A stretch of 64,000 bases of DNA, from contig NZ_WIAO01000018.1 of the NCBI RefSeq assembly GCF_009451885.1, positions 1 through 64,000 of the forward strand, given 5' to 3'. The notes under the pieces are model-generated. The model had not been told where the DNA came from. It saw only the letters and a program-made list of their open reading frames with translations, and searched no databases. Within the stretch, counting starts at the first letter, position 1, and the number at the start of each line of letters is the position of its first letter. Of the stretch, positions 29,700-36,768 are shown in pieces. The position numbers were made by a program, and so were the translations under genes. Origin of the DNA: Glycomyces albidus (GTDB taxonomy: Bacteria; Actinomycetota; Actinomycetes; Mycobacteriales; Micromonosporaceae).

Positions 29700-29764
29700 T
29701 GTGCGGCCATGTACCCGGCCGGGCCCGCGCCGATGATGACGTCGCGGACCTCGGTGGTGCTCAT
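29700..29764 (-). pseudogene. Truncated thioredoxin reductase gene (trxB 5' end)
   Basis: An ATG at 29764, overlapping the arsC stop as ATGA, encodes MSTTEVRDVIIGAGPAGYMAA, the start of a thioredoxin reductase (FAD-binding GAGPAGY). After about 21 codons homology ends within CAGTCGAAACATG and the HTH repeat begins. The rest of trxB is gone. In arsenic operons trxB regenerates thioredoxin for ArsC, so the operon has lost its third enzyme. Confidence 0.8.
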
Positions 29765-30216
29765 GCTTTCTGGTCCTCGGGGAAGAGTTCGGCGAGCAGG
29801 CCCTCAATGCGGGTCTTGATCTCGTCGCGGATGGGGCGGACGGCTTCGACACCTTGCCCGGCGGGGTCGTCGAGTTTCCAGTCGAGGTAGCGCTTCCCGG
29901 GGAAGACCGGGCAGGCGTCGCCGCAGCCCATGGTGATGCACACGTCGGAGGCTTCGACGGCGTCGTAGGTGAGGATCTTCGGTTTCTGGTCGGCGATGTC
30001 GATGCCGACTTCGGCCATGGCCTCGACCGCGGCCGGGTTGACCTGGTCGGCCGGGGCGGAGCCGGCGGAGCGGACCTCGACGCGGTCCCCGGCGAGGTGG
30101 GCCAGCCACCCGGCGGCCATCTGGGAGCGGCCGGCGTTGTGGACGCAGACGAAGAGCACGGACGGCTTCTCGGACATGACGTTTTCCTTTGCGGTGTCGG
30201 GCATTTGGTTGTTCAT
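29761..30216 (-). CDS. arsC: Thioredoxin-coupled arsenate reductase ArsC
   Basis: This 151-residue protein has the low-molecular-weight phosphatase P-loop CVHNAGRS (C24-S31) and the second cysteine region VCITMGCGDACPVFPGKRY, which together form the redox triad. It reduces arsenate to arsenite. ATG 30216 has AGGAAG upstream; an internal ATG at 30177 has AAAGGA and gives the usual shorter N-terminus. It lies 2 nt after acr3 in the arsR-acr3-arsC-trxB' operon. Confidence 0.92.
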   Translation of the reverse strand: MNNQMPDTAKENVMSEKPSVLFVCVHNAGRSQMAAGWLAHLAGDRVEVRSAGSAPADQVNPAAVEAMAEVGIDIADQKPKILTYDAVEASDVCITMGCGDACPVFPGKRYLDWKLDDPAGQGVEAVRPIRDEIKTRIEGLLAELFPEDQKA

Positions 30217-30218
30217 GG

Positions 30219-31304
30219 TCAGGCTTCCTGGAGTTCAGGTGTGCGGAAGAACCGGCGCGCCCACAGACTGACGTAGACGAGGGCGACGAGGACCGGGACT
30301 TCGATGAGCGGGCCGACCACACCCGCGAGGGCTTGACCGGAGGCGGCGCCGAAGGTGGCGATGGCGACGGCGATGGCGAGCTCGAAGTTGTTGCCCGCGG
30401 CAGTGAAGGCGAGGGTCGTCGTGCGCCCGTAGCCCAGGCCGACAGCCTTGCCGAAGGCGAACGACCCGGCCCACATGATCGCGAAGTACGCCAGGAGCGG
30501 GAGCGCGATGCGGACGACGTCCATGGGCTGGGCGATGATCGCCTCGCCTTGCAACGCGAAGAGCACGACGATGGTGAACAGGAGGCCGTAGAGCGCGAAC
30601 GGCCCGATCTTGGGGAGGAACTTCGACTCGTACCAGTCGCGGCCCTTGCGGCGCTCGCCGATCCGTCGCGTCAAGTACCCGGCGGCGAGCGGGATGCCGA
30701 GGAAGACGGTGACGTTGAGGGCGATCTCCCAGCCCGAGACGTCGAGTCCGGTGGCGTCGAGGCCGAGCCAGCGGGGCAGGGCGTCGAGGTAGAGCCAGCC
30801 GAGGGCGCCGAAGGCGATGACCTGGAAGACCGAGTTCAGGGCGACGAGGACGGCGGCGGCTTCGCGGTCGCCGCAGGCGAGGTCGTTCCAGATGATGACC
30901 ATGGCGATGCACCGGGCGAGCCCGACGATGATGAGCCCGGTCCGGAACTCGGGCAGGTCGGGCAGGAAGATCCACGCGAGGGCGAACATGAGCACGGGCC
31001 CGATCAACCAGTTGAGGACGACCGAGGAGACCAGGAGCCGCTGGTCGGCGGTGACCGAGTCGAGCTTGTCGTAGCGGACCTTCGCCAGGACCGGGTACAT
31101 CATGATCAGCAGCCCGGCCGCGATCGGGAGCGAGACGCCGCCGATCTGGATCGCGTTCAGTGCCTTACCCACGGCTGGGATCCACTGGCCCAAAGCGATG
31201 CCGGCGAGCATGGCAGCGCCGATCCAGACGGGCAGGTACTTGTCGAGGGTCGAGAGCCGTCCGCCCATCGCCGTCTTCTGCTCGGCGGCGGTGTGGGCGG
31301 TCAT
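30219..31304 (-). CDS. acr3: ACR3 family arsenite efflux permease
   Basis: This 361-residue protein has about ten membrane helices and the ACR3 marks LDKYLPVWIGAAMLAGIALGQ near its N-terminus, the fourth-helix cysteine in GLARCIAMVIIWNDLACGD, and ALFAGNN-like conserved AAGNNFELAIAVAIATFG. It expels arsenite made by ArsC. It overlaps arsR by ATGA and is followed at once by arsC. Confidence 0.95.
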   Translation of the reverse strand: MTAHTAAEQKTAMGGRLSTLDKYLPVWIGAAMLAGIALGQWIPAVGKALNAIQIGGVSLPIAAGLLIMMYPVLAKVRYDKLDSVTADQRLLVSSVVLNWLIGPVLMFALAWIFLPDLPEFRTGLIIVGLARCIAMVIIWNDLACGDREAAAVLVALNSVFQVIAFGALGWLYLDALPRWLGLDATGLDVSGWEIALNVTVFLGIPLAAGYLTRRIGERRKGRDWYESKFLPKIGPFALYGLLFTIVVLFALQGEAIIAQPMDVVRIALPLLAYFAIMWAGSFAFGKAVGLGYGRTTTLAFTAAGNNFELAIAVAIATFGAASGQALAGVVGPLIEVPVLVALVYVSLWARRFFRTPELQEA

Positions 31305-31672
31305 GCGTTCACGCCCTGCGGGACCGAGAGGACGGTGGAGAGCAGGTCGAGAGCGGGCTGCTCGGCGCGGTAGTAGACCCAGGTGCCGCGGCGTTCGGCG
31401 GTGACGAGGCCGATCTCCTTGAGGACTTTAAGGTGGTGGGAGATGGTCGGGGCGGTCAGGTCGAACGCCTCGGTCAGATCGCACACGCACGTCTCGCCGC
31501 CCGCATGGGAGGCGATGAGCGAGAGCAGCCGCAGCCGCACCGGGTCGCCGAGCGCTTTGAACGAGGGGGCCAGGCGCTCGGCCTGGTCGGCGGTGAGAGG
31601 TTCGGCGACCAGGGGGACGCGGCAGTCCTCCAGGTCCGCGCCGCCCACGAGTTGAACAGGCTGTTTCGACAT
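31301..31672 (-). CDS. arsR: ArsR arsenic-responsive repressor
   Basis: This 123-residue protein has a winged HTH (VRLRLLSLIASH, DLTAPTISHHLKVLKEIGLV) and the metalloregulator motif TCVCDL with C62 and C64, plus C17 near the N-terminus. This pattern matches arsenite sensors that bind through cysteines near the DNA-binding helix. It heads the arsR-acr3-arsC operon and probably represses it as well as the divergent ArsC gene. Confidence 0.92.
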   Translation of the reverse strand: MSKQPVQLVGGADLEDCRVPLVAEPLTADQAERLAPSFKALGDPVRLRLLSLIASHAGGETCVCDLTEAFDLTAPTISHHLKVLKEIGLVTAERRGTWVYYRAEQPALDLLSTVLSVPQGVNA

Positions 31673-31925: not shown

Positions 31926-32570
31926 ATGCCTGCTGAGAGCCTGACCATCCCGCCCGAAGCGGCCCGGCTGCTGCGCCATTCGGCCGAGCGCCTGGCTGAA
32001 CGTTTCGCGGACGCGTTCTCCCCTGAGACCGTGGCCGAGTGCCTTGACGACTCCTACATCGTTCTGGCCGCGACCGCCCGGGTCCGCGACCACCTGTACG
32101 TCCTGGCTGAGCGGTTCGCGGCCGAGCGCTTGGCCGCCACCGCCAAGGCCACCGGGCTCGCGGTCGCGGACGTGCCGGAGGTGCTGTTCGTGTGCGTCCA
32201 CAATGCCGGACGCTCCCAGATGGCCGCCGCGCTCCTGGCCCACCATGCCGCCGGGCGCGTGGTGGTCCGCTCGGCCGGCTCGGCTCCGGTCGACCAGGTC
32301 AACCCGGCGGTCGTCACAGCGATCGAGGAGATCGGCCTGGACGTCTCACAGGAGTTCCCCAAGCCGTTGACCGACGAGACCGTGCGAGCTTCGGATGTCG
32401 TGGTCACCATGGGCTGCGGCGACGCCTGCCCGATCTACCCGGGCAAGCGCTACCTGAACTGGGAACTCGACGACCCGGCCGGGCAGAGCCTCGAGACCGT
32501 GCGCGGCATCCGCGACGATCTCGACGCGCGCGTCCAGACCCTGCTGCGCGAGCTCCTCGGCCAGGCGTGA
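31926..32570 (+). CDS. arsC: Arsenate reductase with N-terminal three-helix domain (mycothiol type)
   Basis: The 214-residue protein has about 80 helical N-terminal residues (EAARLLRHSAERLAERFADA, ATARVRDHLYVLAERF) followed by a low-molecular-weight phosphatase domain with CVHNAGRS (C90-S97) and TMGCGDACPIYPGKRY. This architecture is that of actinobacterial arsenate reductases which use mycothiol and mycoredoxin in place of thioredoxin. It is divergent from arsR and separated from the flavoprotein by a terminator. The window also holds mshB, consistent with mycothiol. Confidence 0.9.
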   Translation: MPAESLTIPPEAARLLRHSAERLAERFADAFSPETVAECLDDSYIVLAATARVRDHLYVLAERFAAERLAATAKATGLAVADVPEVLFVCVHNAGRSQMAAALLAHHAAGRVVVRSAGSAPVDQVNPAVVTAIEEIGLDVSQEFPKPLTDETVRASDVVVTMGCGDACPIYPGKRYLNWELDDPAGQSLETVRGIRDDLDARVQTLLRELLGQA

Positions 32571-32649: not shown

Positions 32650-34164
32650 TCAGCCGCAGCAGCTGCCTGTGGCGGGCTGGAGTTGCGGCAGTTCGCGGCG
32701 CTCGCCGGAGTAGCCGTGCAGGACGCCGGTCGCCAGGCCGCGCCCGACCGAGACCGGCTCCGGAGCGGCCGTGCCGCAACCCGAACCGGCCGCAGCGGTG
32801 TCACTCGTGCCGCAACCGGCGTCGGCATTCGCGGTCGAGCCGCAGCAGCCGCCGGCCTCGCCCGCTTCGGCGATCGAGGTGGCCTCCAGGGACCGGCTGG
32901 AAGAGCACACGCCGGTCTCGGGCAGCTCCAGCTCCACCTTGTCGGCGGCCTCGCGGTCCCCGGCCAGGGCGGCGGCGATGGAGCGGACCTGCTCGTAGCC
33001 GGTGGCGAGCAGGAACGTCGGCGCCCGGCCGTAGGACTTCATACCGACCAAGTAGAAGCCCTCGTCGGGCTGGGCGAGGTCGGCCTCGCCGTGCGGGGGC
33101 ACGGTGCCGCAGGAGTGGAAGTTCGGGTCGATGAGCGGCGCGAGCTTCGCGGGAGCTTCGACGGTGCTGTCGATCTCGAGCCGGACTTCGCGCAGCATGT
33201 CGAGGTCGGGCCGGAATCCGGTCGCGGCGGCGACGTGATCGGTCTCGATGATCTGCTCGACGCCGGCGATGTTGCCCACCACCGCGACCGAGCCATCCGC
33301 ATGCGGCTCGAATCGGTCGATGGTGAACCCGGTGACGAGTTCGATCGCACCCGATTCGACCAGTTCCCGCAGGCGGGTGCCGATCGTGCCGCGCGCGGGG
33401 AGCGCGTCCGCTGACCCGCCGCCGTAGAGGCGGGTCGGGGAGTCGCCGCGGATCGCCCACACCACAGTCGTGTCCGCTTCCTGCTCGGCGAGCTGGGCGA
33501 GGTTCAGCAGGGTGTTCGCCGCGGAGTGGCCCATGCCGACCACGAGGGTCCGCTTGCCCGCGAACCGGTTCCGCTCGCTCCCGAGGACGTCTGGCAGCGG
33601 CCCGGCCGCCCACGCAGCGTCTGCGTCTTCGCCGGGTGCGGCGAGGCCGTGGGCGCCGAGAGGGTTGCGCTGTCCCCAGGTGCCGGAGGAGTCGATGACC
33701 GCGTCGACGACCAGGTCCGCCCATTCGCCCTCGGTGGTGCGGGTGCGCACCAGGTAGGGGCGGCCGTCGCGGCCGATGGTGCGGGTCTTGTCCACCCCCA
33801 GCCGCGCCACCGCCGTCACGCGGGTCCCGTAACGAATGTGCTCGGCCAGCTCGGGGGTCTTCGCGAGCGGGGCGAGGTAGGCGTCGATGAGTTCGGCGCC
33901 GGTGGGGAGGGCGTCGGGGTCGGGGGCGATCCAGCCGTGCGATTCGAGGAGCCGGCGGGCGGCCGAGTCGATGTCGAAGCGCCACGGGGAGAACAGGCGC
34001 ACGTGCCCCCACTGGCGGATCGCGTCGGCCGGTCCTTCCCCGGCTTCGAGGACGATCGGGGTCAGGCCGCGCTCGATCAGGTGCGCGGCGGCGGCGAGTC
34101 CGACCGGGCCCGCGCCGATCACGGCGACGGTGGTGGTGGCGGGGTGCTCGTTGCGGTTGGACAT
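32650..34164 (-). CDS. NAD(P)/FAD-dependent flavoprotein with cysteine-rich C-terminal tail, arsenic-linked
   Basis: This 504-residue protein starts with TTTVAVIGAGPVGLAAAAHL, a first dinucleotide-binding motif, and has a second at RTLVVGMGHSAANTLL (about 205-220). From about residue 418 a low-complexity tail contains seven cysteines (420, 440, 441, 451, 463, 502, 503) including CCGS and a terminal CCG. The catalytic part resembles flavoproteins of actinobacterial arsenic islands, of unknown reaction. The cysteine tail may bind arsenite or another thiophilic metal. It is divergent from an ArsR gene with a dyad between them. Confidence 0.8.
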   Translation of the reverse strand: MSNRNEHPATTTVAVIGAGPVGLAAAAHLIERGLTPIVLEAGEGPADAIRQWGHVRLFSPWRFDIDSAARRLLESHGWIAPDPDALPTGAELIDAYLAPLAKTPELAEHIRYGTRVTAVARLGVDKTRTIGRDGRPYLVRTRTTEGEWADLVVDAVIDSSGTWGQRNPLGAHGLAAPGEDADAAWAAGPLPDVLGSERNRFAGKRTLVVGMGHSAANTLLNLAQLAEQEADTTVVWAIRGDSPTRLYGGGSADALPARGTIGTRLRELVESGAIELVTGFTIDRFEPHADGSVAVVGNIAGVEQIIETDHVAAATGFRPDLDMLREVRLEIDSTVEAPAKLAPLIDPNFHSCGTVPPHGEADLAQPDEGFYLVGMKSYGRAPTFLLATGYEQVRSIAAALAGDREAADKVELELPETGVCSSSRSLEATSIAEAGEAGGCCGSTANADAGCGTSDTAAAGSGCGTAAPEPVSVGRGLATGVLHGYSGERRELPQLQPATGSCCG

Positions 34165-34225: not shown

Positions 34226-34246
34226 TATCAGCGTTTGCTGTTGATA
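34226..34246. promoter_or_regulatory. ArsR-type operator between flavoprotein and its ArsR
   Basis: TATCA (34226-34230) and TGATA (34242-34246) form a dyad with an 11-bp spacer in an AT-rich stretch 26 nt before the ArsR start. It lies where it could control both divergent genes. Confidence 0.55.
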
Positions 34247-34271: not shown

Positions 34272-34631
34272 ATGACCCGCACGATCGAACTCACTCCGGC
34301 CTCGATCGCCGCCGAGCCCGACGGCGACCTCATCGACCGCGCCCGCGAGCTCGCCCCGCAGTTCAAGGCCCTCGCCGACGAGAACCGCCTCGCGATCGTC
34401 CTGCTGCTGTCCGAGCGCGACCGCACCGTCCGCGAACTGACCGACGCCACCGGCCTGGCGCAGACCCTCGTCTCCCACCACCTCGCGCCGCTGCGCGAAC
34501 TCGGCCTGGTCACCGTGACCCCCAAGGGCCGCAGCAACGTCTACTCCTTGTGCTGCGACGCGTTCACCGCACCGATGCGCGCCCTCGCCGGCCTGTCGAA
34601 CAACACCGAATCCACCGGCTGCGGCTGCTGA
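34272..34631 (+). CDS. ArsR family regulator with two C-terminal cysteine pairs
   Basis: This 119-residue winged-helix protein (PQFKALADENRLAIVLLL, then LAQTLVSHHLAPLRELGLV) carries a vicinal pair C94-C95 (YSLCCDAF) and a C-terminal CGC (C117, C119). The first-helix CxC of classical ArsR is absent, so metalloid sensing would use the C-terminal cysteines as in other ArsR subgroups. It is divergent from the cysteine-tailed flavoprotein. Confidence 0.88.
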   Translation: MTRTIELTPASIAAEPDGDLIDRARELAPQFKALADENRLAIVLLLSERDRTVRELTDATGLAQTLVSHHLAPLRELGLVTVTPKGRSNVYSLCCDAFTAPMRALAGLSNNTESTGCGC

Positions 34632-34641
34632 CCCGGGAGCG

Positions 34642-35187
34642 GTGAGGACCATGGCGCAGCCGCCGACCATCGACCGCGAGGCACTCCACGCGGAGATGGA
34701 GCGGGCCCGCACCGAGTTCCACCGCTTCCTGGGCGCGGCGGACGCCGAAGCGCTGCGCCGCCGCACCGACGGGACCCGCTGGACCAATGAGCAGATGCTG
34801 TTCCACATGCTCTTCGGCTACTTCCTGGTCCGCGCACTCCGGGTCCTTGTGGTCGGCATGGACCGCGCACCCCGCTGGTGCTCGCGGAGCTTCGCTGGGG
34901 CGTTGAACGCCACGACCCGGCCGTTCCACACCGTCAACTACCTCGCCTCGTGCGCCGGGGCCACGGTGATCGACCACCGTCGGGCCGGGCGCCGCTTCGA
35001 CCGGACGGTCGCCGCCCTCCACCGCCGCCTCGACGCCGAAACCGACACCGACCTCGCCCGCGGTATGCACTTCCCGCCCGGCTGGGACCCGTTCTTCAAG
35101 CGCTACATGACCCTCGCCGAGCTCTACCACTACGCGACGGTGCACTTCGACTTCCACCAGCGCCAACTCACCATCGACCGCGGCTGA
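34642..35187 (+). CDS. DinB-like protein
   Basis: The 181-residue helical protein has WTNEQMLFHMLFGYFLVRAL and a C-terminal YHYATVHFDFHQRQL, whose histidine spacing (H..HxxxH) suits the metal site of the DinB/YfiT superfamily. GTG 34642 has a GGGAG site close by; an ATG at 34651 is equally possible. It lies 10 nt downstream of arsR and is probably cotranscribed. Relatives act as thiol-dependent S-transferases, which could fit mycothiol chemistry, but this is inference. Confidence 0.72.
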   Translation: MRTMAQPPTIDREALHAEMERARTEFHRFLGAADAEALRRRTDGTRWTNEQMLFHMLFGYFLVRALRVLVVGMDRAPRWCSRSFAGALNATTRPFHTVNYLASCAGATVIDHRRAGRRFDRTVAALHRRLDAETDTDLARGMHFPPGWDPFFKRYMTLAELYHYATVHFDFHQRQLTIDRG

Positions 35188-35217: not shown

Positions 35218-35532
35218 TCAGCAGCACCCGTCCAAGAATCCTCGCAACCGGTCGAGCGCGGCGCCGATCCGCTCCTTGTCCGCCCGGTAGTAGACCGTCT
35301 TCGCCTCACGGCGGCTGGCCAGCAGACCGCCGTCCTTGAGCTGCGCCAACTGCTGCGAGGCCGTCGACTGGCCGATCCCCAGTCGCTCGGCGACCTCGCC
35401 GACGCTCAACTCACCGCCGCCGGCGAACAGCAGCATCACCTGCTGGCGCGCCTCGGAAGCGAGGGCCTTCAAGAACCGGCCCGTCGCCTCGTCGGGCACG
35501 GGCACAGCGGGATCGGAGTTCGCGGTCGCCAT
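35218..35532 (-). CDS. ArsR family regulator (third in the arsenic island)
   Basis: This 104-residue winged-helix protein (LKALASEARQQVMLLF, then GIGQSTASQQLAQLKDGGLL) ends in DGCC (C103-C104). Start ATG 35532. It is divergent from the FAD monooxygenase gene across a 13-bp perfect inverted repeat. Confidence 0.87.
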   Translation of the reverse strand: MATANSDPAVPVPDEATGRFLKALASEARQQVMLLFAGGGELSVGEVAERLGIGQSTASQQLAQLKDGGLLASRREAKTVYYRADKERIGAALDRLRGFLDGCC

Positions 35533-35595: not shown

Positions 35596-36768
35596 ATGGA
35601 CCTCATCGACACCCTCGTCATCGGCGCCGGGCAATCCGGCCTCGCCACCGCCCACGCCCTTGGCCAGCAAGAGATCGCACCGGTGCTCCTCGAAGCGGGC
35701 GACGCCCCGACCGGAGCATGGCCCAACTACTACGACTCGCTCACCCTGTTCTCCCCGGCCCGCTATTCCGCCCTGCCCGGCATGCCCTTCCCCGGGGAGC
35801 CTGACCGGTACCCCCACCGCGACGAGGTCATCGCCTACCTCGCCGCCTACGCCGAGCGCCTCGACGCCGACCTCCGCACCGGCCACCGCGTGCAGACCCT
35901 CACGCACGACGATGGGATCTTCACCGCGCACCTGGCCGACGGCCGCGCCCTGCACGCGCGTACCGTCGTCGCCGCCACCGGCGGCTTCACCAACCCCCAC
36001 CGGCCCGCACTCCCCGGCCTCGACACCTTCACCGGCACCGTCCTCCACGCCGCCGACTACCGCAGGCCCGAACCTCTCACCGGGCAACGCGTCATAGTGG
36101 TCGGCGGCGGCAACTCCGCCATCCAGATCGCCGTCGAACTCGCCGAACGCGCGCGGGTCACCGTCACCACCCGCGGGAGGCTCCGCTTCGCACCCCAACG
36201 ACCCCTCGGCCGGGACCTGCACTTCTGGTACACCATCACCGGCCTCGACACCGCCCCCATCGGACGCTTCCTCACCCACCCGCCCACCGTCCCGGTCCTC
36301 GACACCGGCCGCTACCGCCGCGCCATCACAGGGGGACGCCCCGACCACCGGCCCATGTTCGCCCGCCTCGACGGCGACCGGGTCCACTGGAGCGACGGCA
36401 CCACCGAGCAAGTCGACGCGATCATCCTCGCCACCGGCTACCGCCCCGCCCTCGACTACCTCACCGGACTCAACCTCCTCGACCAGCACGGACACCCACG
36501 CCACCGGAGCGGCATCGCCACCAGCCTGCCGGGACTGGGCTTCGTCGGCCTCGAATGGCAACGAAGCCTCTCCTCCGCCAGCATCCGCGGCGTCGGCCGC
36601 GACGCCGCCCGCATTGCAAGCTCCCTCGCGAAGGTGGCAGGCTCGCCAAATCCCGTATTCCCTCAAGTCGTCCTCGATGCTGCCGCCAAGCGAAAAGCCG
36701 GTACTAAGAACGATCTCCCACTCACCGGGCTGGATCTGCCTGACGGTCCTCGCGAATCAACTTCTTGA
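35596..36768 (+). CDS. FAD-dependent monooxygenase (flavin-containing, ArsO-like)
   Basis: This 390-residue protein has FAD motif VIGAGQSGLATAHAL (about 7-21), NAD(P)H motif VVGGGNSAIQIAVEL (about 165-180) and an ATG-type third motif IILATGYRPALDYLTGL. It resembles ArsO-type flavoproteins next to arsenic genes. The last 40 or so residues (from SPNPVF onward) run into the 3' side of the HTH copy and differ in character, so the native C-terminus was probably lost or replaced when the repeat recombined there. Confidence 0.85.
   Translation: MDLIDTLVIGAGQSGLATAHALGQQEIAPVLLEAGDAPTGAWPNYYDSLTLFSPARYSALPGMPFPGEPDRYPHRDEVIAYLAAYAERLDADLRTGHRVQTLTHDDGIFTAHLADGRALHARTVVAATGGFTNPHRPALPGLDTFTGTVLHAADYRRPEPLTGQRVIVVGGGNSAIQIAVELAERARVTVTTRGRLRFAPQRPLGRDLHFWYTITGLDTAPIGRFLTHPPTVPVLDTGRYRRAITGGRPDHRPMFARLDGDRVHWSDGTTEQVDAIILATGYRPALDYLTGLNLLDQHGHPRHRSGIATSLPGLGFVGLEWQRSLSSASIRGVGRDAARIASSLAKVAGSPNPVFPQVVLDAAAKRKAGTKNDLPLTGLDLPDGPRESTS

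What the first reader, a model, noticed from the sequence alone, without database searches (positions are those of the whole stretch)
32650..34164. Flavoprotein with a seven-cysteine C-terminal tail in the arsenic island
From residue 418 an alanine/glycine-rich tail carries C420, C440-C441, C451, C463 and C502-C503, ending CCG. It follows a two-dinucleotide-site oxidoreductase and has its own cysteine-rich ArsR (CC and CGC motifs) and dyad. The tail could bind As(III) or deliver it to the active site, a possible arsenic redox or sequestration enzyme.
Basis: partly seen in the sequence, partly recalled or inferred. Interest (0 to 1): 0.6.

Follow-up and report, generated by a model that had tools for sequence, protein, structure and literature searches.

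The report
Arsenic-island flavoenzyme with cysteine-trap tail
This is a widespread bacterial flavin enzyme, nearly always found beside arsenic-resistance genes, whose floppy end keeps a conserved set of three cysteines that probably catches trivalent arsenic or antimony and presents it to the enzyme; that chemistry has not yet been tested.

Summary
In detail: the 504-aa protein (minus strand) has tail cysteines C420, C440-441, C451, C463 and C502-503; its only other cysteine is C352. The tail is conserved. In 116 one-per-genome class homologues, all keep C420 and 113 a later CC; C352 is kept in 129 of 129, plasmid homologues included. Seven cysteines is a Glycomyces elaboration of a three-cysteine unit. 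An ArsR-type or other ars gene lies nearby in 115 of 116. Of neighbouring proteins, 3 of 385 have CC in the last 60 residues, against 112 of 116 here. Six tail-less relatives lack the C352 motif and recognised ars neighbours. The core fold is YpdA/thioredoxin-reductase/FMO-like without core CxxC, CxxxxC or FMO fingerprint. Best reading: a flavin enzyme for trivalent metalloid, probably oxidising MAs(III) or Sb(III) as reported for ArsV, with the tail as a three-thiol trap feeding the active site, comparable to mercuric reductase's C-terminal CC. Binding, delivery and direction are untested. Identity with ArsV could not be checked (papers not held).

The parts
32650..34164 (-). FAD/NAD(P)-type flavoprotein, 504 aa, ATG start at 34164, TGA stop 32650-32652
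   Evidence: a paralogue of about 85% identity on G000:C11
34099..34116 (-). FAD-site GAGPVG, residues 17-22
   Evidence: sequence; G17, G19, P20, G22 invariant in 27 rows
33520..33537 (-). NAD(P)-site GMGHSA, residues 210-215
   Evidence: sequence; G210, G212, S214, A215 invariant in 27 rows
33109..33111 (-). core cysteine C352 in the H[ST]CG motif, inside a stretch absent from a YpdA-like relative (L014)
   Evidence: 129 of 129 homologues; insertion seen in alignment A3
33025..33039 (-). KSYGR, residues 376-380, in the last FAD-contact segment (placement inferred from the fold)
   Evidence: 127 of 129 homologues
32653..32913 (-). Ala/Gly/Ser-rich C-terminal tail, residues 418-504
   Evidence: residues 409-504 at pLDDT under 50 in a weak full-length model
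32905..32907 (-). tail cysteine C420 (LPETGVC)
   Evidence: 116 of 116 class loci and 13 of 13 plasmid loci
32842..32847 (-). tail vicinal pair C440-C441
   Evidence: a CC in the tail in 113 of 116 class and 11 of 13 plasmid loci; C440 invariant, C441 at least 90% in A1
32812..32814 (-). C451, lineage-specific
32776..32778 (-). C463, lineage-specific
32656..32661 (-). terminal pair C502-C503 before the final Gly
   Evidence: a CC in the last 6 residues in 31 of 116 class loci; kept in 9 of 9 named Glycomyces loci
34226..34246 (.). dyad TATCAGC-N7-GTTGATA between the divergent genes, candidate ArsR operator
   Evidence: same place in the other Glycomyces loci, 5 of 9 strictly
34272..34631 (+). 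divergent ArsR with C94-C95 and C117-x-C119
   Evidence: arsR-flavoprotein pair in 9 of 9 named Glycomyces loci and at the C11 paralogue
31926..32570 (+). ArsC-type arsenate reductase (LMW phosphatase fold) with N-terminal three-helix domain, convergent with the flavoprotein
31301..31672 (-). ArsR beside acr3 and arsC
30219..31304 (-). ACR3 arsenite efflux transporter
   Evidence: TIGR00832, 442.9 bits, cut-off 282.8
29761..30216 (-). second ArsC-type arsenate reductase

Best explanation
An ArsR-controlled, NAD(P)H- and FAD-dependent enzyme acting on trivalent metalloid. Proposed cycle: (1) the disordered C-terminal arm catches As(III), MAs(III) or Sb(III) with C420 and the C440-C441 pair, like the Cys12/13/18 site of ArsD; (2) the arm folds back, on its own or a partner subunit, and hands the metalloid to the active site, perhaps through C352; (3) reduced flavin plus O2 oxidises it to the pentavalent form, as reported for ArsV; (4) neighbouring ars proteins deal with the product. 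In Glycomyces, C451/C463 and the terminal C502-C503 would be extra capture sites. Because the same island has two ArsC-type reductases and ACR3, oxidising inorganic As(III) would be undone, so MAs(III) or Sb(III) is the likelier substrate. Shown: cysteine conservation, ars linkage, fold class, absence of a core dithiol. Inferred: binding, hand-over, oxidative direction, substrate and ArsR control.
For: C420 in 116 of 116 and CC in 113 of 116 class homologues; 13 of 13 and 11 of 13 plasmid homologues from Actinomycetota, Pseudomonadota and Bacillota. C352 in 129 of 129, the only core cysteine in 109 of 129. Short tails shrink to little more than the three cysteines (L119: ALPATGVCDVDGGGCC). Beyond the LPxTGV start of the tail, only cysteine columns are invariant (27 chosen rows). 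ArsR-type or other ars gene near 115 of 116 class loci, 89 of 116 with one other than arsR, and near 12 of 13 plasmid loci. Matched control: 3 of 385 neighbour proteins with CC in the last 60 residues. Six tail-less relatives, among them L217/L218 at 48-50% identity, lack the C352 motif and recognised ars neighbours; Pfam on 6 chosen neighbour ORFs of L217 (of 29 ORFs listed) gave pyruvate-formate-lyase-like, radical-SAM, Usp, nitroreductase and cNMP-binding proteins and one without a match. Fold: YpdA Z 27.4, rmsd 3.2, 320 aligned; a putative FMO and TrxR chains next. Two Ensifer adhaerens plasmids carry arsR-flavoprotein-arsK; ArsV, a flavin monooxygenase oxidising organoarsenicals and antimonite, is cited in PMC11719878 (passages). 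ArsD Cys12/13/18 form an As(III) site (PMC4562236, passages). MerA's C-terminal cysteine pair delivers Hg(II) to the active site (PMC10587081, passages).
Against: No binding or activity data exist here. The region holding C352 is not resolved (residues 327-360 pLDDT under 50), so its nearness to the flavin is a guess. The FMO fingerprint FxGxxxHxxx[FY] is in 0 of 129 cores. Three class homologues keep C420 but lack a tail CC (L092, L097, L101), and two Bacillota members have spaced cysteines instead of CC (L081, L082). The closest fold match is a disulfide reductase, which favours a reductive rival. Tail-bearing members without a recognised ars gene in the stretch held: L151 and L078, L212 and L216 (L216 is only 5.4 kb). 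The tail-less relatives may stand for as few as two events. Calling it ArsV rests on recall and gene order, not on a sequence comparison.
Confidence: 0.5

Rival explanations
1. Thiol relay: the tail cysteines carry electrons, not metalloid. The flavin reduces a tail disulfide, which then reduces a partner such as an ArsC disulfide, a low-molecular-weight thiol disulfide or a thiol-arsenate adduct, in the manner of high-Mr thioredoxin reductase with its C-terminal Cys pair (recalled).
For: Closest folds are the bacillithiol disulfide reductase YpdA and, in part, thioredoxin reductases. ArsC-type genes lie near 74 of 116 class homologues. The terminal CC-G of the Glycomyces form resembles such tails by eye.
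Against: No core CxxC or CxxxxC to pass electrons from flavin to the tail and no Cys after the GxGP loop, each in 0 of 129 cores. 42 of 116 loci have no ArsC match nearby. The tail CC is terminal (last 6 residues) in only 31 of 116.
Confidence: 0.22
2. Sequestration, safety catch or sensor: the tail binds metalloid to buffer it, to protect the flavin site, or to switch activity on, but does not feed the catalytic site; the enzyme's substrate could be something else made under arsenic stress.
For: The tail is low-complexity and varies from 16 to 95 residues in 116 class loci, and the spacing from the first tail Cys to CC varies from 6 to 41, which is loose for a precise hand-over. Extra cysteines accumulate in some lineages.
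Against: C352 in the core and the tail cysteines are kept together in 129 of 129 (the CC in 124 of 129) and missing together in 6 relatives, suggesting one joint task. A pure buffer would not need an invariant C420 next to the core.
Confidence: 0.18
3. Primary target is another thiophilic ion, such as Hg(II) or an organomercurial, rather than arsenic.
For: One plasmid homologue sits beside merR-merA (L081) and one near an alkylmercury lyase family gene (L083).
Against: MerA matches occur near only 5 of 116 class loci and all are weak (46-79 bits), against 115 of 116 with ArsR-type or other ars genes.
Confidence: 0.05
4. The cysteine tail is a by-product of GC-rich, low-complexity drift with no function.
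For: The rest of the tail is Ala/Gly/Ser-rich and poorly conserved.
Against: Cysteines kept across three phyla, invariant columns in A1, and 3 of 385 neighbour proteins as control.
Confidence: 0.02

Closest known systems
ArsV (flavin monooxygenase of organoarsenicals and antimonite, Zhang et al. 2022 Environ Microbiol; ArsV/ArsW, Chen et al. 2021; both seen only as cited titles)
   Same: Flavin enzyme described in its title as widely present in soil bacteria. In two Ensifer adhaerens strains (M8, E-60) this family sits as arsR-flavoprotein-arsK. I recall that ArsV was described from Ensifer adhaerens ST2; one review table lists it for Paracoccus sp. SY.
   Different: Not tested: neither primary paper is held and no ArsV sequence was available, so it is unknown whether ArsV is this family and whether its tail has been described.
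Mercuric reductase MerA
   Same: Flavin enzyme whose C-terminal vicinal cysteine pair delivers a thiophilic ion to the active site (PMC10587081, PMC8261052, passages). The window protein ends CCG.
   Different: No active-site CxxxxC pair (0 of 129); the conserved tail unit is C...CC and usually not terminal. Dihydrolipoamide dehydrogenases, the class MerA belongs to (recalled), appear in the fold rows at Z about 20.5, below YpdA; MerA itself is not in the rows listed, which excludes nothing.
YpdA/Bdr bacillithiol disulfide reductase
   Same: Best fold match, Z 27.4 over 320 residues; 27 of 27 members of A1 hit TIGR04018 at E up to 0.001.
   Different: 46.1 bits against cut-off 339.9 for the window protein; no Cys after GxGP; carries an insertion with C352 and the tail.
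ArsO flavin monooxygenase (NF040505)
   Same: Flavoprotein of ars clusters; N-terminal half homologous (47.1 bits).
   Different: Far below cut-off 425. Streptomyces plasmid pFRL5 has an annotated ArsO and a member of this family as separate genes.
ArsD As(III) metallochaperone
   Same: Three-cysteine As(III) site that includes a vicinal pair, Cys12/13/18 (PMC4562236, passages).
   Different: Unrelated protein; similarity is only in the chemistry proposed.

Membership tests
ArsO (NCBIfam NF040505) | Score above curated cut-off 425 | tested here: not met
   47.1 bits over residues 12-228
YpdA/Bdr (TIGR04018) | Score above curated cut-off 339.9 | tested here: not met
   46.1 bits
YpdA/Bdr (TIGR04018) | Cysteine following the GxGP loop (recalled as the catalytic Cys) | tested here: not met
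   0 of 129 cores
Thioredoxin reductase (low Mr) | CxxC in the core (recalled) | tested here: not met
   0 of 129 cores
[quoted passage not shown]
   C502-C503 in the window protein; but CC in the last 6 residues in only 31 of 116 homologues
Mercuric reductase | Redox-active cysteine pair spaced CxxxxC (positions 207 and 212 in PMC8261052) | tested here: not met
   0 of 129 cores
Class B flavin monooxygenase | FMO fingerprint FxGxxxHxxx[FY] (recalled) | tested here: not met
   0 of 129 cores
Class B flavin monooxygenase | Two-dinucleotide fold like solved FMOs | tested here: met
   4a9w Z 21.5, rmsd 4.0, 306 aligned; 3d1c Z 23.6, rmsd 3.8, 315 aligned; shared with YpdA and TrxR, so not specific
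ArsV | Sequence homology to E. adhaerens ST2 ArsV | not testable with these tools
   papers not held; no model named ArsV among the NCBIfam rows shown
ArsV | Gene in an ars operon with arsR and a transporter (recalled) | tested here: inconclusive
   MFS gene directly downstream in 7 of 13 plasmid loci, after one small ORF in an eighth; an MFS match in 38 of 116 class loci; none adjacent in the window
ArsV | Oxidises MAs(III) or Sb(III) with NADPH | not testable with these tools
   needs enzymology

The most novel reading that the evidence does not exclude
A widespread class of metalloid flavoenzymes in at least Actinomycetota, Pseudomonadota and Bacillota that independently arrived at the mercuric-reductase trick: a disordered arm with a three-thiol trap (GVC...CC) that captures trivalent As or Sb and passes it, via a single conserved core cysteine, to a flavin that oxidises it, on a scaffold without any catalytic disulfide.
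Probability: 0.4. Interest if true: 0.7.

Novelty: new variant of a known kind. Interest (0 to 1): 0.52.

Why it matters
In the class-wide draw 123 of 394 genomes, own included, have a match at E up to 1e-30 (at least one of them, G371, is a tail-less relative), yet the plasmid records seen name it only generically, mostly as FAD-dependent oxidoreductase or NAD(P)-binding protein. A conserved, mutable three-cysteine arm plus one core cysteine gives a direct test of how a flavoenzyme could capture trivalent metalloid, and natural tail-less relatives provide built-in controls. The signature H[ST]CG + LPxTGVC + CC can be used to name the family in ars islands.

Tried and rejected
ArsO assignment: rejected, 47.1 bits against cut-off 425. 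Disulfide reductase of TrxR, GR/MerA or YpdA type by core anatomy: disfavoured, no core CxxC, CxxxxC or loop Cys in 129 cores. Canonical FMO: fingerprint in 0 of 129. Tail as chance: rejected. Seven cysteines as the functional unit: rejected in favour of three. MerA is not among the rows listed; that absence is not evidence against a shared fold.

Structure: the full-length AlphaFold model from 11 sequences was poor (pLDDT 53.0). A core-only model from 13 sequences reached 69.9 but left residues 327-360, which hold C352, under 50, so no distance from C352 to the flavin could be argued. IMG/VR gave 0 relatives with the single sequence and 1 with the alignment. The tree does not settle whether L217/L218 lost the tail or branch before its origin.

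Literature: among the rows listed (several lists were capped) I saw no title or abstract start describing this tail. I read passages, not whole texts, of ten papers. The two ArsV papers are not held, so I do not claim the tail is unpublished.

Sampling notes: of 122 class genomes with a match besides G000, 116 were fetched, one best place each (checked). Left out of the counts were G008, G204, G225, G347 (partial matches), G371 (distant, 38%) and G259 (an oversight). G225 and G371 were read later: G225 has HSCGTV and then leaves the family's frame, with an arsR and an arsC nearby; G371 is tail-less with no HSCG and no recognised ars gene. Further copies in the same genomes were not counted. 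The 13 plasmid loci were my choice for diversity from 138 matching records, two of them near-identical Ensifer loci. The 27 rows of alignment A1 were also my choice and left out L092, L097 and L101, which lack a tail CC. The loci lean towards the closest homologues and were not used for counts. One search uses BLAST (E up to 1e-5) to a small reference set in stretches of about 4.4 kb on each side, some shorter at contig ends; ArsR there can include ArsR-type regulators that are not ars, and the distances printed are stop-to-stop and were not used. The control takes frames matching that reference set at E up to 1e-20.

Full report
What is there. The ORF at 32650-34164 reads on the minus strand and encodes 504 residues. 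Its eight cysteines are 352, 420, 440, 441, 451, 463, 502 and 503. Upstream, 107 bases separate it from a divergent arsR (34272-34631, +) with C94-C95 and C117-G-C119. Between them is a dyad, TATCAGC-N7-GTTGATA (34226-34246), found in the same place in the other Glycomyces loci, as TATCA..TGATA in 5 of 9 and with TGGTA in the other 4. Downstream it converges on an arsC (31926-32570, +), followed by arsR, acr3 and a second arsC on the minus strand. Of 11 related loci found in the named-genome collection, 9 are Glycomyces. The host genome G000 has a second copy of about 85% identity on contig C11, also beside arsR, acr3 and arsC. The arsR-flavoprotein pair is present in 9 of 9 named Glycomyces loci.

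Is the tail real signal? I fetched 116 homologous loci, one per genome, from the 122 other matching genomes of a class-wide draw of 394, and 13 plasmid loci from Actinomycetota, Pseudomonadota and Bacillota. C420 is present in 116 of 116 and 13 of 13. A CC pair follows in 113 of 116 and 11 of 13. C352 in an H[ST]CG motif is present in 129 of 129 and is the only core cysteine in 109 of 129. Tail cysteine content is 7.4% against 0.29% in the core for the class set. In alignment A1 (27 rows of my choice), from residue 417 on the invariant columns are T417, G418, V419, C420 and C440, with C441 at 90% or more. Some of the shortest tails, for example ALPATGVCDVDGGGCC, keep just the three cysteines. 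As a matched control, 385 neighbouring proteins from the same loci have a CC in the last 60 residues in 3 cases; the family has it in 112 of 116. The 43 neighbouring matches to ArsO and to a second ars-linked flavoprotein have none. The Glycomyces seven-cysteine form adds C451, C463 and a terminal CC to this unit.

Exceptions. L092 keeps C420 plus one later Cys; L097 and L101 keep only C420 in the tail. Two Bacillota plasmid members, L081 and L082, have spaced cysteines rather than CC.

Arsenic linkage. Within about 4.4 kb on each side, an ArsR-type regulator is found in 113 of 116, another ars-type gene (arsC, acr3, aquaporin, arsO, arsA) in 89 of 116, and one or the other in 115 of 116; L151 has none. 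In the plasmid set 12 of 13 have one; L078 has none. There an MFS transporter gene follows directly in 7 of 13, and after one small ORF in an eighth. In two Ensifer adhaerens plasmids that gene is annotated arsK, and genes annotated as azurin-type arsenate reductase (the arsenite-oxidase type) lie nearby.

A natural experiment, with limits. A profile search of 296 genomes of the phylum and the family search turned up further relatives that I then read. Five (L212-L216) keep HSCG, GVC and a later CC; ArsR matches lie beside three of them (L213-L215), while L212 and the short stretch L216 show no recognised ars gene. L217 and L218 (48-50% identity to the window protein, from two related genomes) have RPRGGP where the HSCGT stretch should be, no cysteine tail and no recognised ars gene nearby. 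Pfam on 6 chosen neighbour ORFs of L217 gave a pyruvate-formate-lyase-like enzyme, a radical-SAM protein, a universal stress protein, a nitroreductase and a cyclic-nucleotide-binding protein, and one without a match. Four more distant relatives (L209, L210, L211, L219; 34-38%) also lack the tail, HSCG and recognised ars neighbours. So the core C352 motif and the tail cysteines are missing together, and where they are missing I saw no ars gene; the converse holds in most but not all tail-bearing loci. A tree of 142 cores leaves open whether L217/L218 lost these features or branched off earlier; the six tail-less rows need as few as two events.

Fold. The core-only model (pLDDT 69.9, pTM 0.68) best matches YpdA (Z 27.4, rmsd 3.2, 320 aligned), then a putative FMO (3d1c, Z 23.6) and thioredoxin reductases (5mh4, Z 23.3). 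The alignment to a YpdA-like relative (L014) shows that C352 sits in a stretch of about 17 residues absent there, before the last FAD-contact segment (that segment is named from recall of the fold). That C352 faces the flavin is inference; this region is not resolved. Core CxxC, CxxxxC, a Cys after GxGP and the FMO fingerprint are each found in 0 of 129. The tail is modelled at pLDDT under 50, but in a poor full-length model.

Mechanism. With no disulfide in the core, a thioredoxin-reductase-like electron path into the tail is hard to draw. A three-thiol set with a vicinal pair is the kind of site that binds As(III): ArsD uses Cys12, Cys13 and Cys18 (PMC4562236, passages). A flexible C-terminal cysteine pair that delivers a thiophilic ion to a flavin active site is known from mercuric reductase (PMC10587081, passages). 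Flavin oxidation of organoarsenicals and antimonite is reported for ArsV (title and citing passage in PMC11719878; PMC10080717, passages). Putting these together, I propose capture by C420 and C440-C441, hand-over with C352, and flavin-dependent oxidation. Because arsC and acr3 sit beside it, inorganic As(III) oxidation would be futile here, which points to MAs(III) or Sb(III). The first two steps rest on conservation and chemistry, the third on analogy. The main rivals are a thiol relay and a buffer or switch.

What it is called. It is not ArsO (47.1 of 425 bits) and not YpdA (46.1 of 339.9) by NCBIfam cut-offs, and not TrxR or MerA by core motif. No curated family specific to it appeared among the NCBIfam and Pfam rows shown. 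It may well be ArsV: same type of enzyme and setting, and (recalled) same host species as two of the plasmid loci. The ArsV papers are not held, so neither identity nor prior description of the tail could be checked.

Verdict. The interest lies in a clean, widely conserved and easily mutated candidate metalloid-capture arm with natural tail-less controls.

Noticed in passing
35596-36768 (+) and 35218-35532 (-): A second flavoprotein (390 aa, no cysteine at all) matches ArsO at 251.9 bits, below the cut-off of 425, and has its own divergent ArsR with C103-C104 at its end.
   Followed up: partly
34642-35187 (+): A DinB_2-family protein follows arsR directly; DinB matches also lie near 3 of 116 class homologues. 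It could be a thiol-transferase-type partner (guess).
   Followed up: no
31926-32570 (+): This ArsC carries an N-terminal three-helix domain (PF21234, NF046112) fused to the reductase.
   Followed up: no
L064, L068, L072 (and L097, which ends inside it): Some homologues carry an inserted, apparently helical stretch of roughly 60 residues in the tail between GVC and the terminal CC.
   Followed up: no
L083 4004-4888 and the ArsR neighbours of many class loci: A long ArsR-type regulator (about 290 aa) sits divergently beside the flavoprotein in many loci, with an unidentified extra part.
   Followed up: no
L081 (Staphylococcus arlettae pSA-01): A family member lies beside merR-merA on a plasmid.
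   Followed up: no
L203 (IMGVR_UViG_3300032896_000074): One IMG/VR contig encodes a family member with an Ensifer-like tail.
   Followed up: no
L209, L210, L211, L219: A tail-less sister group (34-38% identity) keeps KSYGR-like motifs and has its own conserved [EQ]CYA...DCLA cysteines; function unknown, no recognised ars neighbours.
   Followed up: partly
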